From positions 1 to 27,692 of the IMG/VR virus record IMGVR_UViG_3300048800_000081: 27,692 bases of DNA, one strand, 5' to 3'. Below are positions 4,403 through 23,937 of the stretch, one piece after another. Position 1 is the first letter of the stretch; each line of letters opens with the position of its first letter. The notes beneath the pieces are model-generated. The model saw nothing but the letters and a program-made list of their open reading frames with translations. It ran no database searches and was not told the origin of the DNA. The position numbers and the translations under genes were made by a program. Source of the stretch: a virus.

Positions 4403-4699
4403 CTAGCGATAGCAGAAAGCGCGAGACTTATCACAAAAGCGTTTGCAAAACTGCTTGCCTCTGCTGTTCAATGCCGGCGTGGCAGATTCGTAACGTGTTC
4501 GGTAAGACGCCATGGCATTCCACTGGATGCCATAGGAGCGCGGCTGTCTGTACCGTGACCTCGTTGGCTCACGATAATCGCCTCTACCTATGAACTTCCG
4601 ATCACGCATATCCAGCATAGCCGGCCCGCGCCCGAAGAATCGCTCTGCTGATGCGCCAAGTAGTGCTGCCGCTAATGCTAAAATATTTATTTGTTTCAT
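4403..4699 (-). CDS. Small basic protein with a signal peptide (98 aa)
   Basis: The N-terminus MKQINILALAAALLGASA is a classical signal peptide, with likely cleavage after ASA near residue 18. The remainder is strongly basic and rich in Arg and Tyr (GDYREPTRSRYRQPRS), with two cysteines near the end. Export to the periplasm is inferred. GGAGA lies upstream at good distance and the ATG overlaps the previous TGA (ATGA, 4696-4699). No family is recognised. Confidence 0.65.
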   Translation of the reverse strand: MKQINILALAAALLGASAERFFGRGPAMLDMRDRKFIGRGDYREPTRSRYRQPRSYGIQWNAMASYRTRYESATPALNSRGKQFCKRFCDKSRAFCYR

Positions 4700-5085
4700 G
4701 TTGGTTTCTCCACTTCGGCCTTGGCTTCGTGTTCATCGTAGATCGTGAAGAGGCCGAAAACGCCCAGCGATAGTGCGATCACATAAGTCGCGCACCACCA
4801 CACGACGTTGTCGGCATCGGGTAGATAGACGTATAGCCCGATGAGCGCAATCACGCTGACCAATACGCACAGCAGACCGAGCAGCGAGTAGTGGATGCGG
4901 ATGGTGATTGGTCGGTTCACTAGATATTGGACCTTCTTCATACCTGCTTCGAAGTTAGAGATGTCCGCCTTTAGTTCAATAAAAAGTGCGCCGTTGGCAG
5001 TGGTGTTTTTTGCGAGAAAATGCGCACCGCGCAGCGGGTAGCCACGGCGGAGATACCGGCTCAGGTTTGCAAAATAGTCATTCAT
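4696..5085 (-). CDS. Two-span membrane protein with a coiled N-terminus (129 aa)
   Basis: The frame is open from a GTG at 5094, but the ATG at 5085 overlaps the TGA of the upstream small gene (ATGA, 5082-5085) and is preferred. A soluble N-terminal part of about 65 residues (KADISNFEAGMKKVQYLV) precedes two hydrophobic helices (SLLGLLCVLVSVIALIGLYV and WWCATYVIALSLGVFGLF). It ends in an acidic/Lys tail (EHEAKAEVEKPT). The function is unknown; a membrane-anchored early phage protein is the most one can say. Confidence 0.7.
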   Translation of the reverse strand: MNDYFANLSRYLRRGYPLRGAHFLAKNTTANGALFIELKADISNFEAGMKKVQYLVNRPITIRIHYSLLGLLCVLVSVIALIGLYVYLPDADNVVWWCATYVIALSLGVFGLFTIYDEHEAKAEVEKPT

Positions 5086-8448: not shown

Positions 8449-8711
8449 GCGGCGATCTATTTTCTTCTGAGCCCGTCGCCAGCACATCCTTTTTTGATGG
8501 GACTTGCGATTTGTGCACCGCTGCTGCCGGCATTTACAACTGGGGAAACCTTTGTTGTCGTGCGCGTTTTGTGACCAGCTTGCCGGGCATCGATTTGCGG
8601 CGCGGCTGGATGGCGCGCTGGAAGTCGCGCGAGACGCCGAGTTTCTATGCGGCCATTGCGCGTGCGGTAAAAGCGCAATGGGAAATTAAAACGGGGGTGG
8701 CACATGGCTGA
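8445..8711 (+). CDS. Small Cys-rich early phage protein (88 aa)
   Basis: A putative zinc-binding motif (GTCDLCTAAAGIYNWGNLCC, residues 19-38) precedes a basic region (RRGWMARWKSRETPSFYAAI). The cysteine pattern and 'YNWG' spacing recur in small proteins upstream of VapE/primase genes in phages, with unknown function; a role in replication is inferred from context. The ATG overlaps the previous stop (ATGA), and its end overlaps the VapE-like ATG by 8 bp, so it is part of a coupled replication operon. Confidence 0.75.
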   Translation: MSGDLFSSEPVASTSFFDGTCDLCTAAAGIYNWGNLCCRARFVTSLPGIDLRRGWMARWKSRETPSFYAAIARAVKAQWEIKTGVAHG

Positions 8712-10746
8712 GAAACCGCGCTCGGTATGGATGCCGATCTTGCCGATACCGGACGATGCGCCGGTGGTGCGCGTGCGGCACCCGACTCGCGGCGAGCCGT
8801 TGCGGATTTTCTTTTATACCGATGCCGATGGGCGACCGCTCGGGCATGTATGCCGCTTCATGACTTCATCCGGCGAAGCGCTGCATCTGCCGCTCACCTG
8901 GTGCCAGGATCAAAACGGCGTCCGGGGTTGGCGCTGGATTCAGTTCCAGCGTTTACGCCCGCTGTTTGGCCTGGACAAGCTGGCCGCCGATCCGTTGGGG
9001 ATGGTTCTGGTCGTCTTCGACGAAAACGAAGCTGATGCGGCGAGGAAGCTGCTGCCGAATATCGGTTGCGTTGTCTCATGGCCGGGCGGATTGCGCAAAA
9101 TAGACGAGGTTGATTGGTCTTCATTGCGCGGCCACAAGATTGTGATCTGGCCGACGCTGACGATGGATCGATCCAAGGTCAAGCGTGGTGATGACAGCGG
9201 TGTAGTTCTGCCACGCGAGCGCCAGTCCGGTTGGCAGGCGGCGCTTAAGCTGGAAAAGATCGCGCTCGGCTATGGATGCCCAAGGGTGGACATCATCGAT
9301 CCGTTTGGCAGTGATCTGCCGGATGGCTTCGGGCCCTCAATGGTGGATTTACAGGGTTGGGATGAAAAGCAGGTGTGGGATTTCGTCTTTAAGCATGTCA
9401 AAAATGGTATCGGTTCCGATTTCGAACAGCGCGTGCGCAGGCTGCGTGGCGAGCGTTTGCCAGCCGAGCCGCCCGGCGCCGAAGTACAGCTCGCATCCGA
9501 TGATGAAAAATGGCATCTGCATCTGCTGACCAAACACGGCGACGTGCTTCCTTGCCTGGCGAACGTGCATGACATTCTTGCGAACGCTGAAGCGTGGCGC
9601 GGCGTGGTGGCATTCGACGAGTTCGCGCAGCGCGTGGTCAAACTCAAAGCACCGGTATATATCGGCGGGAAGATGGGCGAATGGGGTTCGACAGATGATT
9701 CCATGACCGCAATGATGCTCTCACGGTTATTTCAATTCACTCCTTCATCGTTAATAGTCGCCGAGGCCGTCGAAGTGATCGCGCGCGAGAACGGATTCCA
9801 CCCGGTGCGAATCTGGCTGCGCACACTCAAGTGGGATGGCGTGCCGCGTCTGGATGATTGGTTGTGCGATTTTATTGGTGTGGAAAAAACGGAATATTCA
9901 AGGCGCGTGGCGCGCTGGTTTTTGACCGGAATGGTGGCGCGCGTGATGAAGCCAGGCGTGAAATTCGATTATTGCCTTGTGCTGGAAGGGATTCAGGGGT
10001 TGCTGAAGAGCGGCATGTTTGAGGCGCTGGCGGGTGAGTGGTTCAGCGATGCTGACATCGATTTGAGCAACAAGGATTCAATGTCCGCTTTGCAAGGCGT
10101 TTGGTTGCATGAATTTGCGGAGCTGGGCTCATTAGCTCGGCATGAATCGTCCAGGCAAAAGAGTTTTATTTCTCGCAAGATAGACAGATACCGCCCCGTC
10201 TATGGCAGGCGCGAAATCAGCGTTCCTCGCCAGGTGGTTTTCGGTGGGTCGACGAATGAGACATGGGACTGGAATAAAGACCCGACAGGTGGGCGGAGAT
10301 TCTGGCCTGTCCTGGTTGTTAATGAAGTAAACATCGAAGGACTGAGACTCGCGCGCGAGCAATTGTTCGCCGAGGCCGTGGTGATGTTCGATAAGGGTGA
10401 GAAATTCTGGCCCACCTTGGCGGAGCAACGCGAGTTGTTCGACCCTGAGCAGCTCAAGCGCGAGCAACAAGATTCGCTAATCGATCTGCTGCACGATTGG
10501 GTTGCGAATCAGTATAAAGAATTTCCGCTGTCCGCCGCAGGAATAGATGGATTGAAGTTGGACGCGTCGAAGTTGACACGGGATTTACAAACGAGAATCG
10601 GCATTGCTTTGCGCAAGCTCGGCTGCACCAAAATTGAAAAACGTAACGGAATGACTCGCTATTGGTACAAGCCGCCAGAGAAAACGGCAAAGTCGATTGG
10701 CAGCATTCCGGTGCAATTATCGGGAGACGAACATGACGCGTTTTGA
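8704..10746 (+). CDS. VapE-type replication ATPase/primase-helicase
   Basis: This 680-residue protein has an N-terminal region of primase/TOPRIM-like character (PLGMVLVVFDENEADAARKL near 98-117). Its C-terminal ATPase domain belongs to the virulence-associated E (VapE/D5-like) family: YCLVLEGIQGLLKS (about 423-436, Walker A), WLHEFAEL (Walker B region), ISRKIDRYRPVYGRRE, GGSTNET and TGGRRFWPV (sensor and arginine motifs). It most likely initiates or drives phage DNA replication. The P-loop reads GIQGLLKS, with Leu where the classical P-loop has Gly. The start overlaps the upstream gene by 8 bp and has GGGTGG before it. The repeat array immediately downstream (10753-10988) is the probable site of action. 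Confidence 0.9.
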   Translation: MAEKPRSVWMPILPIPDDAPVVRVRHPTRGEPLRIFFYTDADGRPLGHVCRFMTSSGEALHLPLTWCQDQNGVRGWRWIQFQRLRPLFGLDKLAADPLGMVLVVFDENEADAARKLLPNIGCVVSWPGGLRKIDEVDWSSLRGHKIVIWPTLTMDRSKVKRGDDSGVVLPRERQSGWQAALKLEKIALGYGCPRVDIIDPFGSDLPDGFGPSMVDLQGWDEKQVWDFVFKHVKNGIGSDFEQRVRRLRGERLPAEPPGAEVQLASDDEKWHLHLLTKHGDVLPCLANVHDILANAEAWRGVVAFDEFAQRVVKLKAPVYIGGKMGEWGSTDDSMTAMMLSRLFQFTPSSLIVAEAVEVIARENGFHPVRIWLRTLKWDGVPRLDDWLCDFIGVEKTEYSRRVARWFLTGMVARVMKPGVKFDYCLVLEGIQGLLKSGMFEALAGEWFSDADIDLSNKDSMSALQGVWLHEFAELGSLARHESSRQKSFISRKIDRYRPVYGRREISVPRQVVFGGSTNETWDWNKDPTGGRRFWPVLVVNEVNIEGLRLAREQLFAEAVVMFDKGEKFWPTLAEQRELFDPEQLKREQQDSLIDLLHDWVANQYKEFPLSAAGIDGLKLDASKLTRDLQTRIGIALRKLGCTKIEKRNGMTRYWYKPPEKTAKSIGSIPVQLSGDEHDAF

Positions 10747-10752
10747 TCCCAA

Positions 10753-10988
10753 GGTTAGGAAGGTAGGGCAGAGGTTGGGAACCCTGCAAGCCTCGCCCAT
10801 GGCTGATGTTCCTAACCTTCCTAACCTTCCCTACCTGTCTCTCATGTGTGCGAGCATGCGCCCGCGCATATACGCGCGCGTGTACGTAACTCGTTTTACG
10901 TTGGGAAGGTTAGGAAGGTTAGGAAGATTGGCTTGTTTATTGGCTTGCAGGGTTCCCAACCTCGGCTTTAGGTTGGGAAGGTTGGGAA
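10753..10988. repeat. Origin-like array: 9-bp iterons and two nested perfect inverted repeats
   Basis: The 9-mer GGTT(A/G)GGAA occurs on the plus strand at 10753, 10773, 10908, 10917, 10971 and 10980, and inverted at 10809, 10818 and 10953, with degenerate copies at 10762, 10827 and 10899. Two perfect inverted repeats are nested: an outer 22-bp pair (10771-10792 with 10942-10963) and an inner 23-bp pair (10809-10831 with 10903-10925). The centre (10832-10902) holds alternating purine-pyrimidine sequence (gcgcatatacgcgcgcgtg) able to unwind or adopt unusual structure. Located directly after a VapE-type ATPase, this is a strong candidate replication origin. It fills the gap between vapE and the next gene. 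Confidence 0.8.
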
Positions 10989-11022
10989 GCTGCTTAAATT
11001 TACAAGGAGATTTGCGATAACC

Positions 11023-11190
11023 ATGAGCGTGATTCTGCCACAACGGTTCTATGGCGATCCAGCCGAATGCGTGGACGAGTTGCGCAAGATTCATGAACAG
11101 CAAAAGCGCAAGGCGGATCGCACCAGGATTTACAAGGGGCAGCGCATCCGTGCGCTGGTGAAGCAAGTGATGAAAGGGGTGCGGCGATGA
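11023..11190 (+). CDS. Small basic hypothetical protein (55 aa)
   Basis: MSVILPQRFYGDPAECVDEL is followed by a strongly basic helical region (RKIHEQQKRKADRTRIYKGQ) and a basic tail (KQVMKGVRR). An AAGGAGA motif lies somewhat far (about 12 nt) before the ATG at 11023. Its TGA overlaps the ATG of the Q-like gene (ATGA, 11187-11190). A DNA- or RNA-binding role is plausible by charge only. It probably belongs to the late-regulation unit. Confidence 0.65.
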   Translation: MSVILPQRFYGDPAECVDELRKIHEQQKRKADRTRIYKGQRIRALVKQVMKGVRR

Positions 11191-12145: not shown

Positions 12146-13481
12146 ATGTTGATTGAATACCGGAGCGTTGAGGCGTTGGTGCCTTATGCTCGGAACAGCC
12201 GGACGCATAGTGATGCGCAGGTTGCGCAGATCATGGCGGCGATGGTTGAGTTTGGGTGGACGAATCCGGTGCTGGCGGATGGCGATGGGATTGTCGCGGG
12301 GCACGGGCGGGTGATGGCGGCGTCCAGGTTGTATGAGCAGGGCGAGACGATACGGTTGCCTGGTGGTGATGAGGTTCCTGACGGGATGGTGCCAGTGATC
12401 GATTGCACCGGATGGTCGGTAGTGCAGCGCAAGGCTTATATCATCGCGGACAATCGGCTGGCTGAAAATGCCGGATGGGATTCGGCGATGCTGGCGCTGG
12501 ATATCGGCGACCTGCGCGAGTGCGGGTTCGATGTCGGGTTGACCGGTTTCAACGATGCGGATCTGAATGCGCTGATCGCGCCGAAAGGAAATGCAGGGCT
12601 GACCGATCCGGACGACGTGCCGGAAGTACAGCCCGATCCGATCAGTAGGCTGGGCGACTTGTGGCTGATGGGCAAGCATCGGTTGATGTGTGGCAGCAGC
12701 ACCGAAGCTGAAACGGTAGAAAGGCTGCGGGGGGGGGGCGATACCAATCCTGATGGTGACCGACCCGCCTTACGGGGTGAGCTACGATGCAAGCTGGCGC
12801 CTTGCAGCGGGCATAAATAAATCATGGCAAACCCGCGCTGAGGGGAAGGTACTAAACGATGATCGGGTAGATTGGTCAGAGGCATGGGCATTATTTCCCG
12901 GCGATGTATTTTATTGCTGGCATGCCGACCGGCATGCCAGCGCGGTGCAAGCGTCGATGGAATCCGCTGGGTTTGAAATCCGCTCGCAAATCATATGGGC
13001 AAAAAATTCACTGGTAATGGGCCGAGGACATTATCACTGGCAACATGAGCCTTGCTGGTACGCCGTGAGGAAGTCCGCGACTGGGCATTGGGTCGGTGAC
13101 CGGAAGCAGTCAACACTTTGGCAAATCGCAAACATGCATCGAACACAAGGCGATGTGGACGACGGCAAGACTAGTCATTCCACGCAAAAGCCGATCGAGT
13201 GCATGAAACGCCCCATCGAAAACAACAGCAGTCCCGGCGATAGTGTTTACGACCCGTTCGTTGGCAGCGGCACCACGATCATCGCTGCCGAAATGATGGG
13301 GCGTTGTTGCTATGCCATCGAATTGAACCCAGCGTATGTGGATGTTTGCGTGCGCCGCTGGCAAAACTTCACCGGCCAGCAGGCCACGCTCGAATCTGAT
13401 GGGCGCACTTTTGATGAGATATCGGCAGAAAGGATTCAGGCAGCACGATGCGAGGCAGAACACCAACTCCAACCAAGCTGA
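12146..13481 (+). pseudogene. ParB-domain DNA methyltransferase, frameshifted at a G10 tract
   Basis: Two frames make one protein. Frame 1 (12146-12820) carries a ParB/sulfiredoxin-like domain (DGDGIVAGHGRVMAASRLYE) and the linker ISRLGDLWLMGKHRLMCGSS. Frame 2 (12753-13481) begins at MVTDPPYGV (motif IV, DPPY) and ends with DPFVGSGTTIIAAEMMGR (motif I, SAM binding). This is a beta-class N6-adenine or N4-cytosine methyltransferase. The break is at ten consecutive G residues (12729-12738); nine would restore one frame of 444 codons (LRGGAIPILMVTDPPYGV). It could be a phase-OFF state, ribosomal frameshifting, a fixed mutation or a sequencing error. The intact enzyme would probably modify phage or host DNA. 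Its end overlaps the small terminase gene by 34 bp. Confidence 0.88.
12729..12738. repeat. G10 homopolymer causing the methyltransferase frameshift
   Basis: Ten G residues follow gctgc. The upstream frame reads CTG CGG GGG GGG GGC GAT; the downstream frame required by the DPPY motif is one base on. Deleting one G joins them. Poly-G tracts of this length inside methyltransferase genes are a classical phase-variation switch in other bacteria. Confidence 0.92.
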
Positions 13482-23190: not shown

Positions 23191-23937
23191 ATGTATATAA
23201 ATCCCAAATATTTGATCCTTCGGCGATTGCATGACCGCTTCAGCGAAGTCATCCCTGAATGGCAGGGCAAGACCGCCGTGCTGATCGGCGCCGGCGCCAG
23301 CCTCACCGCGATGCAGGTCGCCCAGGTGCATGCCGCGCATGTTGGCGGCAATGTCATGGCCGTCGCGATCAACGACTGTTATTTATGGTGTGACTGGGCG
23401 GACGTGCATTACGCGGCGGATGCCAAGTGGCACAAGTGGCACACCGAAGGACTGGACAAACCGCTGCTCAGGATGACCGCCGCGCAGGTGCGCGAAGCAT
23501 GGGCAACCTTCGCAGGGCAGAAATGCAGCATCCAGGACAGCATGGACGGCATCGCGGATGACACAGTGCACATCCTGCGCAACAAGAGCTATCCGAACCA
23601 CGCGCACGGACTATCGCGCGATCCGCAGGCATTGGGCACCGGCTGGCACAGCGGCTTCCAGGCGCTGAACCTCGCGATACTGGCAGGGGCGAAGACCATC
23701 ATCCTGCTGGGCTTCGATGGCAAGCCGTCGCAGGAAGGCCGCACGCATTTTTTCGGCGAGCACCCAAGCCCGACCAACCCGGCGGTCTTCGAACAGATCC
23801 GCCGTTCTTTTTCGGCGGCGGAAAACGAGATCAAGGAATTGGGCGTGCGCGTGATCAACTGCTCGCCGGGAAGTGCGATCGATTCGTTTGAGAAGATGGA
23901 ATTGGGTGAAGCGCTTAGAAGCAGACGTAAGACGTAA
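23191..23937 (+). CDS. DUF115/MptE-like or sialyltransferase-like protein (248 aa)
   Basis: The Rossmann-type opening WQGKTAVLIGAGASLTAMQV is followed by AVAINDCYLWCDWADVHYAA and, later, GWHSGFQALNLAILAGAKTI, ILLGFDGKP and FFGEHPSPTN. This layout occurs in the DUF115 (MptE-like) proteins and in CST-like bacterial sialyltransferases. Donor and acceptor cannot be told. TAAGGTAG lies before the ATG. It begins a run of sugar- and methyl-transfer genes in the virion region; virion or surface glycan modification is inferred. Confidence 0.75.
   Translation: MYINPKYLILRRLHDRFSEVIPEWQGKTAVLIGAGASLTAMQVAQVHAAHVGGNVMAVAINDCYLWCDWADVHYAADAKWHKWHTEGLDKPLLRMTAAQVREAWATFAGQKCSIQDSMDGIADDTVHILRNKSYPNHAHGLSRDPQALGTGWHSGFQALNLAILAGAKTIILLGFDGKPSQEGRTHFFGEHPSPTNPAVFEQIRRSFSAAENEIKELGVRVINCSPGSAIDSFEKMELGEALRSRRKT

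What the first reader, a model, noticed from the sequence alone, without database searches (positions are those of the whole stretch)
10753..10988. Nested inverted repeats plus 9-bp iterons: likely replication origin of a new type
At least nine exact GGTT(A/G)GGAA copies in both orientations are organised into a 22-bp outer and a 23-bp inner perfect inverted repeat around an alternating purine/pyrimidine centre. It lies just after the VapE-type ATPase gene and before the late regulator. The order suggests initiator binding (iterons), strand opening at the centre, and possible cruciform extrusion. I know no named phage origin with this exact geometry.
Basis: partly seen in the sequence, partly recalled or inferred. 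Interest (0 to 1): 0.8.

Follow-up and report, generated by a model that had tools for sequence, protein, structure and literature searches.

The report
VapE-type phage replication origin
The repeats form a replication start site that recurs directly behind one phage helicase gene in dozens of bacterial viruses; a helicase of the same family as those of staphylococcal pathogenicity islands probably reads them with its tail-end DNA-binding domain, and the middle of the site is, unusually, DNA able to turn left-handed.

Summary
In detail: nine exact GGTTRGGAA copies (0.4 expected), a 23-bp inner and a 22-bp outer perfect inverted repeat, and an alternating purine/pyrimidine centre, in the 276-bp gap directly 3' of vapE. 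It is almost certainly the phage's replication origin, but not of a wholly new type: the VapE helicase half is homologous to SaPI1 Rep (PDB 7PDS), and SaPI/PICI origins likewise lie 3' of rep with two opposed iteron sets.

New is a strict grammar recovered from 197 VapE loci: outer iteron, 27-bp spacer with a TGAAA(G/C)CC box, three 9-bp iterons, ~60-100 bp core, then the mirror image. Iteron sequence changes completely between phages; the grammar stays. One VapE residue, 653 in the C-terminal winged helix, predicts the iteron class perfectly in 64 non-redundant loci (Y/R: GGTTR, F/S: GGTAT; 0 of 400 tree-based simulations reach this). The core is alternating purine/pyrimidine (Z-DNA-prone) in 73 of 77 origins although its sequence is not conserved. 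Cruciform extrusion has little support. Replication, binding and Z-DNA were not tested experimentally.

The parts
8704..10746 (+). vapE: degenerate TOPRIM-type primase half plus self-loading helicase (SaPI1 Rep homologue) plus C-terminal winged helix
   Evidence: PF05272 E=2e-68; 7pds SaPI1 Rep E=4e-89 by profile, Z 33.8 over 387 residues
10462..10683 (+). codons for the VapE C-terminal winged-helix domain (residues 587-660), the proposed iteron reader
   Evidence: AlphaFold2 winged-helix pattern; residue 653 tracks iteron class
10660..10662 (+). codon of Tyr653, the proposed specificity residue
   Evidence: perfect partition of 64 loci; 0 of 400 simulations
10747..11022 (.). whole intergenic replication origin
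   Evidence: position, array and grammar conserved in other loci
10753..10761 (+). outer-left iteron GGTTAGGAA
10773..10781 (+). outer-left iteron GGTTGGGAA, exactly 36 bp before the inner triplet
10782..10808 (+). 27-bp left spacer with box B (here TGCAAGCC; consensus TGAAA(G/C)CC)
10809..10835 (-). inner-left iteron triplet (TTCCTAACC TTCCTAACC TTCCCTACC)
10836..10898 (.). core: 63-bp alternating purine/pyrimidine (Z-DNA-prone) tract ending in an AT-rich patch (CGTTTTA), the proposed opening region
10899..10925 (+). inner-right iteron triplet (CGTTGGGAA GGTTAGGAA GGTTAGGAA)
10926..10952 (-). 27-bp right spacer with inverted box B
10953..10961 (-). outer-right iteron, 36 bp after the last inner iteron
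10971..10988 (+). two outermost-right iterons GGTTGGGAA

Best explanation
This is the phage's origin of replication, a VapE-ori module that works like the SaPI/PICI rep-ori. VapE is a self-loading hexameric helicase whose C-terminal winged-helix domain binds the 9-bp iterons, residue 653 in the wing reading the variable iteron bases. The two inverted iteron groups place two hexamers head to head around the core. Strands separate in the core, most likely at the AT-rich patch next to the Z-DNA-prone tract. The helicases then thread onto single strands and recruit the host replisome. Shown here (by sequence analysis): the anatomy, its conservation behind vapE, the co-variation of iteron and residue 653, and the homology to SaPI1 Rep. 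Inferred: binding, double-hexamer assembly, where the strands open, Z-DNA formation, and replication itself.
For: The array starts 0-101 bp after the vapE stop in all 37 loci (the window included) where vapE was recognised beside the array. A search with no assumed iteron sequence finds opposed 9-bp triplets behind 109 of 197 vapE genes (72 of 153 loci fetched by protein alone; 52 of 62 at 43% or more identity), with none in coding controls or shuffles at that threshold. The outer iteron lies at exactly -36 (55/78) and +36 (46/78), or at 35, even when the iteron is unrelated, e.g. GGGGTGACC in Marinobacter phage PS3. Iteron class switches at least 8 times on the ATPase tree, and residue 653 partitions it perfectly (Y/R vs F/S); R653 goes with TG in 60/60 units. 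The helicase half matches SaPI1 Rep (7pds) with profile E=4e-89 and Z 33.8. [quoted passage not shown] a Gram-negative PICI rep-ori of this organisation was tested for plasmid maintenance (PMC6092414).
Against: No binding or replication experiment exists for this element. GC skew shows no inflection at the site. Most of the more distant VapE loci do not show the triplet grammar in the first 430 bp; some have a gene between vapE and an array, others no detectable array. Among closer relatives (at least 43% identity), 10 of 62 missed the threshold, several of them because of irregular spacing.
Confidence: 0.88

Rival explanations
1. A regulatory operator or transcription element: the repeats are bound by VapE or another protein to control transcription into the late-regulator genes.
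For: It lies between vapE and the Q-like gene in one direction of transcription; a bound array there could block read-through.
Against: Promoter-type operators do not explain a ~240-bp mirrored array with a 60-100 bp alternating core; the array stays tied to the vapE stop codon; the iteron tracks the VapE C-terminal domain. A dual role is not excluded.
Confidence: 0.06
2. A structured RNA or cruciform element, in which the inverted repeats act by folding back.
For: Perfect 22- and 23-bp inverted repeats; full shuffles give a mean hairpin z of -3.5 for the core.
Against: Against shuffles that keep the purine/pyrimidine pattern, z is only -0.9 and 18% of loci are below -2. Rfam matches are far below gathering scores. 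Arms are made of protein-sized 9-bp units whose outer number and order vary between loci.
Confidence: 0.03
3. A packaging, recombination or partition site placed near vapE by gene order.
For: Terminase genes lie about 2.5 kb downstream and a ParB/methyltransferase-like gene 1.2 kb downstream.
Against: Position is tied to the vapE stop codon, not to terminase or integrase, and the iteron co-varies with VapE residue 653.
Confidence: 0.03

Closest known systems
SaPI / PICI rep-ori (SaPI1 Rep, PDB 7PDS; E. coli PICI origins, PMC6092414)
   Same: Homologous helicase; origin directly 3' of the initiator gene; two opposed iteron sets around a core; C-terminal domain as the reported DNA reader (PMC7581432).
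   Different: Carried by a phage with its own terminase, head and portal genes, not a satellite; strict 9-bp triplets with 36-bp outer spacing; a constant box B; the core is alternating purine/pyrimidine and G+C-rich with an AT patch mainly at one side, where the PICI core is described as AT-rich; primase half of several swapped types.
SCCmec Cch2 and its putative origin (PMC7581432)
   Same: Self-loading helicase whose isolated C-terminal domain binds short direct repeats directly downstream of its gene.
   Different: D5-type rather than VapE-type helicase; only three 5-nt iterons; no mirrored array.
SV40 T-antigen origin and the DNA-shearing model (PMC9894130)
   Same: Opposed recognition repeats load two head-to-head hexamers, a parallel those authors drew themselves for SaPI origins.
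   Different: T-antigen recognises DNA with an N-terminal-side domain; its origin is not built of 9-bp triplets around a Z-prone core (own knowledge).
Phage P4 alpha protein with ori/crr
   Same: Primase-helicase initiator with iterons in two regions (own knowledge).
   Different: ori and crr are separate regions rather than one mirrored array behind the gene; no sequence relationship was tested.

Membership tests
SaPI/PICI-type rep-ori replicon | initiator is a self-loading helicase of the SaPI Rep family | tested here: met
   profile E=4e-89 and phmmer E=2e-45 to 7pds (SaPI1 Rep); Foldseek rank 1; Z 33.8 over residues 268-660. Self-loading activity itself not testable here.
SaPI/PICI-type rep-ori replicon | origin immediately 3' of the initiator gene | tested here: met
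   first iteron 6 bp after the stop codon; same in relatives
SaPI/PICI-type rep-ori replicon | two sets of iterons flanking the core | tested here: met
   opposed triplets plus outer copies
SaPI/PICI-type rep-ori replicon | core is an AT-rich melting region | tested here: not met
   middle of the core 65-73% G+C and alternating purine/pyrimidine; the last tenth is AT-rich (26% G+C), the first tenth 41%
SaPI/PICI-type rep-ori replicon | C-terminal domain of the initiator recognises the iterons | tested here: inconclusive
   residue 653 co-variation and winged-helix model support it; no binding assay
SaPI/PICI-type rep-ori replicon | drives autonomous replication with its initiator | not testable with these tools
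   needs a plasmid maintenance assay
PICI (the mobile element itself) | satellite relying on a helper phage for its particles | tested here: not met
   window carries terminase large subunit, head, portal and connector genes
Z-DNA-forming sequence | long alternating purine/pyrimidine run rich in CG and CA/TG steps | tested here: met
   73 of 77 cores exceed shuffles at p<=0.01; window core 76% alternating
Z-DNA-forming sequence | left-handed conformation under natural supercoiling | not testable with these tools
   needs chemical probing or antibody binding
known structured RNA (Rfam) | match to a curated RNA family at its gathering score | tested here: not met
   no match reaches a gathering score

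The most novel reading that the evidence does not exclude
A class of phage replication origins whose core is under selection to form left-handed Z-DNA, so that a B-Z junction beside the AT patch, rather than a plain AT-rich element, is the opening signal between two VapE hexamers, with iteron choice set by one wing residue.
Probability: 0.35. Interest if true: 0.85.

Novelty: new variant of a known kind. Interest (0 to 1): 0.64.

Why it matters
[quoted passage not shown] It offers a ready test system: one residue proposed to set the iteron sequence, a strict spacing rule for loading two opposed helicases, and a conserved Z-prone core that would give Z-DNA a defined job at an origin. It also allows origins to be found by computation behind vapE genes whatever their iteron sequence.

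Tried and rejected
(1) 'New type of origin': dropped as stated after the SaPI1 Rep homology and PICI ori organisation were found. (2) VapE N-terminal region as iteron reader: rejected because TOPRIM, Toprim_3 and PriCT_2 halves are swapped without change of iteron. (3) Cruciform centre: mostly explained by alternation. (4) Dispersed repeat: all 19 clusters in 18 host genomes lie behind vapE. (5) RNA element: only chance Rfam matches. (6) GC-skew inflection: none; uninformative. (7) DNA similarity to known phages or plasmids: no meaningful blastn match, with the low-complexity filter on. (9) Foldseek with the C-terminal domain alone gave no E<=0.001, though many of the weak top matches are winged helices. 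(10) Ubeda 2007 and 2012 and Qiao 2022 are not held, so SaPI details come from papers citing them. (11) Of the 50 pattern hits, the seven with no array of this motif (L021, L030-L032, L045, L053, L054), three short tandem runs (L014, L026, L050) and one odd array (L013) were left out; L012 is cut by its contig end; L045 has a VapE of 33% identity with its own different iteron.

Full report
Observation. The region holds nine exact GGTTRGGAA copies where 0.41 are expected, a 23-nt inner and a 22-nt outer perfect inverted repeat and an alternating purine/pyrimidine centre. It fills the gap between the stop of vapE (10746) and an ORF starting at 11023. The window is a virus record of 27.7 kb with a serine integrase, a repressor-like gene, vapE, a weak Q-antiterminator, HNH, both terminase subunits, head and portal genes, so it is a temperate phage and not a satellite.

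Relatives. A scan of IMG/VR with GGTTRGGAAGGTTRGGAAG gave 50 stretches. In all 37 loci (the window included) where VapE was recognised beside the array, the array starts 0-101 bp after its stop; two more have VapE just outside the fetched piece. To avoid circularity, 159 further loci were fetched by VapE protein alone from IMG/VR and GTDB genomes. The closer ones are mostly prophages of Betaproteobacteria (Nitrosomonas, Nitrosospira, Thauera, Methylovorus, Rhodocyclaceae), with Gammaproteobacteria, Alphaproteobacteria and Acidobacteria further out.

Grammar without assumed sequence. For each of 197 loci I looked in the 430 bp after the stop for two opposed blocks of three 9-bp units, scoring only agreement among the six units. 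109 loci reach 42 of 54; coding controls and shuffles never exceed 40. Among loci fetched by protein alone the figure is 72 of 153, and 52 of 62 at 43% or more identity. The iterons differ: GGTTRGGAA, GGTATGGAA, GGGGTGACC (Marinobacter phage PS3), ACTGGGACA, CCATGACCA, ACCCGGACC and others. In 78 non-redundant origins an outer copy lies at exactly -36 in 55 and +36 in 46, with 35 next. Loci with R653 use 35 on both sides, Y653 loci use 36. The exact 36-bp outer copy was seen with GGTTRGGAA, GGTATGGAA and GGGGTGACC; for several of the rarest iterons it was not. The triplet grammar is therefore kept while the recognised sequence changes.

Box B. The 27-bp spacer between outer and inner iterons carries TGAAA(G/C)CC at a fixed position, once per half and inverted. 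It is found also in loci with unrelated iterons. The outer 22-bp inverted repeat in the window is essentially one outer iteron plus this box (here TGCAAGCC). Its binder is unknown.

Core. In 73 of 77 origins the core contains an alternating purine/pyrimidine run beyond shuffles at p<=0.01; alternation is 0.79-0.87 through the middle (0.5 expected at random), and G+C falls to 0.26 in the last tenth, on the side away from vapE. Sequences themselves are not conserved (median 5% shared 8-mers), and hairpin energy against pattern-preserving shuffles averages only z -0.9. What is conserved is alternation, the property that favours Z-DNA, rather than a cruciform. Step preferences within the run are close to expectation (AT steps 0.84 of expected), so a role of flexible pyrimidine-purine steps rather than Z-DNA proper remains possible. 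No held paper contains both 'Z-DNA' and 'iterons'.

Which protein reads the iterons. VapE has a primase half that is swapped between TOPRIM, Toprim_3 and PriCT_2 types while iterons stay the same. Within the GGTTRGGAA and GGTATGGAA classes (64 non-redundant loci) the class changes 8 times on the ATPase tree. Of all VapE columns, residue 653 stands alone: Y or R with GGTTR in 40 of 40, F or S with GGTAT in 24 of 24, and R with TG at iteron positions 4-5 in 60 of 60 units. It explains all the class entropy, the next column 0.61, and none of 400 traits simulated on the tree reaches it with any column. Independent pairs agree 4 of 4 on supported branches, too few for a sign test. In the AlphaFold2 model residue 653 starts the second wing strand of a C-terminal helix-helix-helix-wing fold; arginine reading guanine fits common chemistry (own knowledge).

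Homology and mechanism. The helicase half is homologous to SaPI1 Rep: profile E=4e-89, Foldseek rank 1, Z 33.8 over 387 residues. That 7PDS, titled PriRep1 and 'similar to D. nodosus vapE', is the SaPI1 protein rests on my own knowledge. SaPI Rep is reported to use its C-terminal domain to recognise an iteron origin directly downstream (PMC7581432), PICI origins always have two iteron sets around an AT-rich region and one was tested for plasmid replication with its initiator (PMC6092414), and opposed hexamers with strand shearing have been proposed for SaPI origins by analogy with SV40 (PMC9894130). The best reading is the same mechanism here, with a different core. Binding, loading, opening and Z-DNA formation are inferred.

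Limits. 58 of the 78 non-redundant origins came from the protein scans, the rest from the motif scan, the phage collection or the window itself. The distant VapE loci mostly lack a detectable triplet array in the tested stretch. Alternation was tested against mononucleotide shuffles and coding windows. The two iteron classes were defined by me before the column scan, but the scan itself covers all columns, which the simulation allows for. No experiment was possible.

Noticed in passing
window 8704-10746, TOPRIM motifs near residues 104-111 and 149-156: VapE of the window and of L018 has lost the TOPRIM catalytic motifs (VEGEKCAD to VFDENEAD, WADCDAKR to WPTLTMDR) and the ~120-residue N-terminal domain, so its primase half looks inactive.
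   Followed up: partly
VapE C-terminus, window codons up to 10743; 78 loci: After a disordered linker VapE ends in an SSB-like tail (acidic, then P-F/I/L): 45 of 78 VapE versus 0 of 587 other ORFs; 56 of 78 end in F. It may recruit host proteins that bind SSB tails.
   Followed up: partly
window 10782-10808 and 10926-10952; many loci: Box B TGAAA(G/C)CC at a fixed place in both spacers, independent of the iteron sequence; binder unknown.
   Followed up: partly
L058 4236-4510 (Marinobacter phage PS3): Same origin grammar with a wholly different iteron GGGGTGACC.
   Followed up: yes
L059 about 4580-4860 (Pseudomonas phage vB_Pae_U5), and several of L110-L142: In many Pseudomonas-type loci a small gene lies between vapE and a TGTCCCAC-type iteron array, in U5 with an alternating core.
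   Followed up: no
window 12146-13481: Two overlapping ORFs match successive parts (33-221 and 226-451) of one DNA methyltransferase family, phrog_498, suggesting a split or frameshifted gene.
   Followed up: no
window 23191-23937: ORF matching a PHROG annotated as alpha-2,3-sialyltransferase in a phage (E=1e-32).
   Followed up: no
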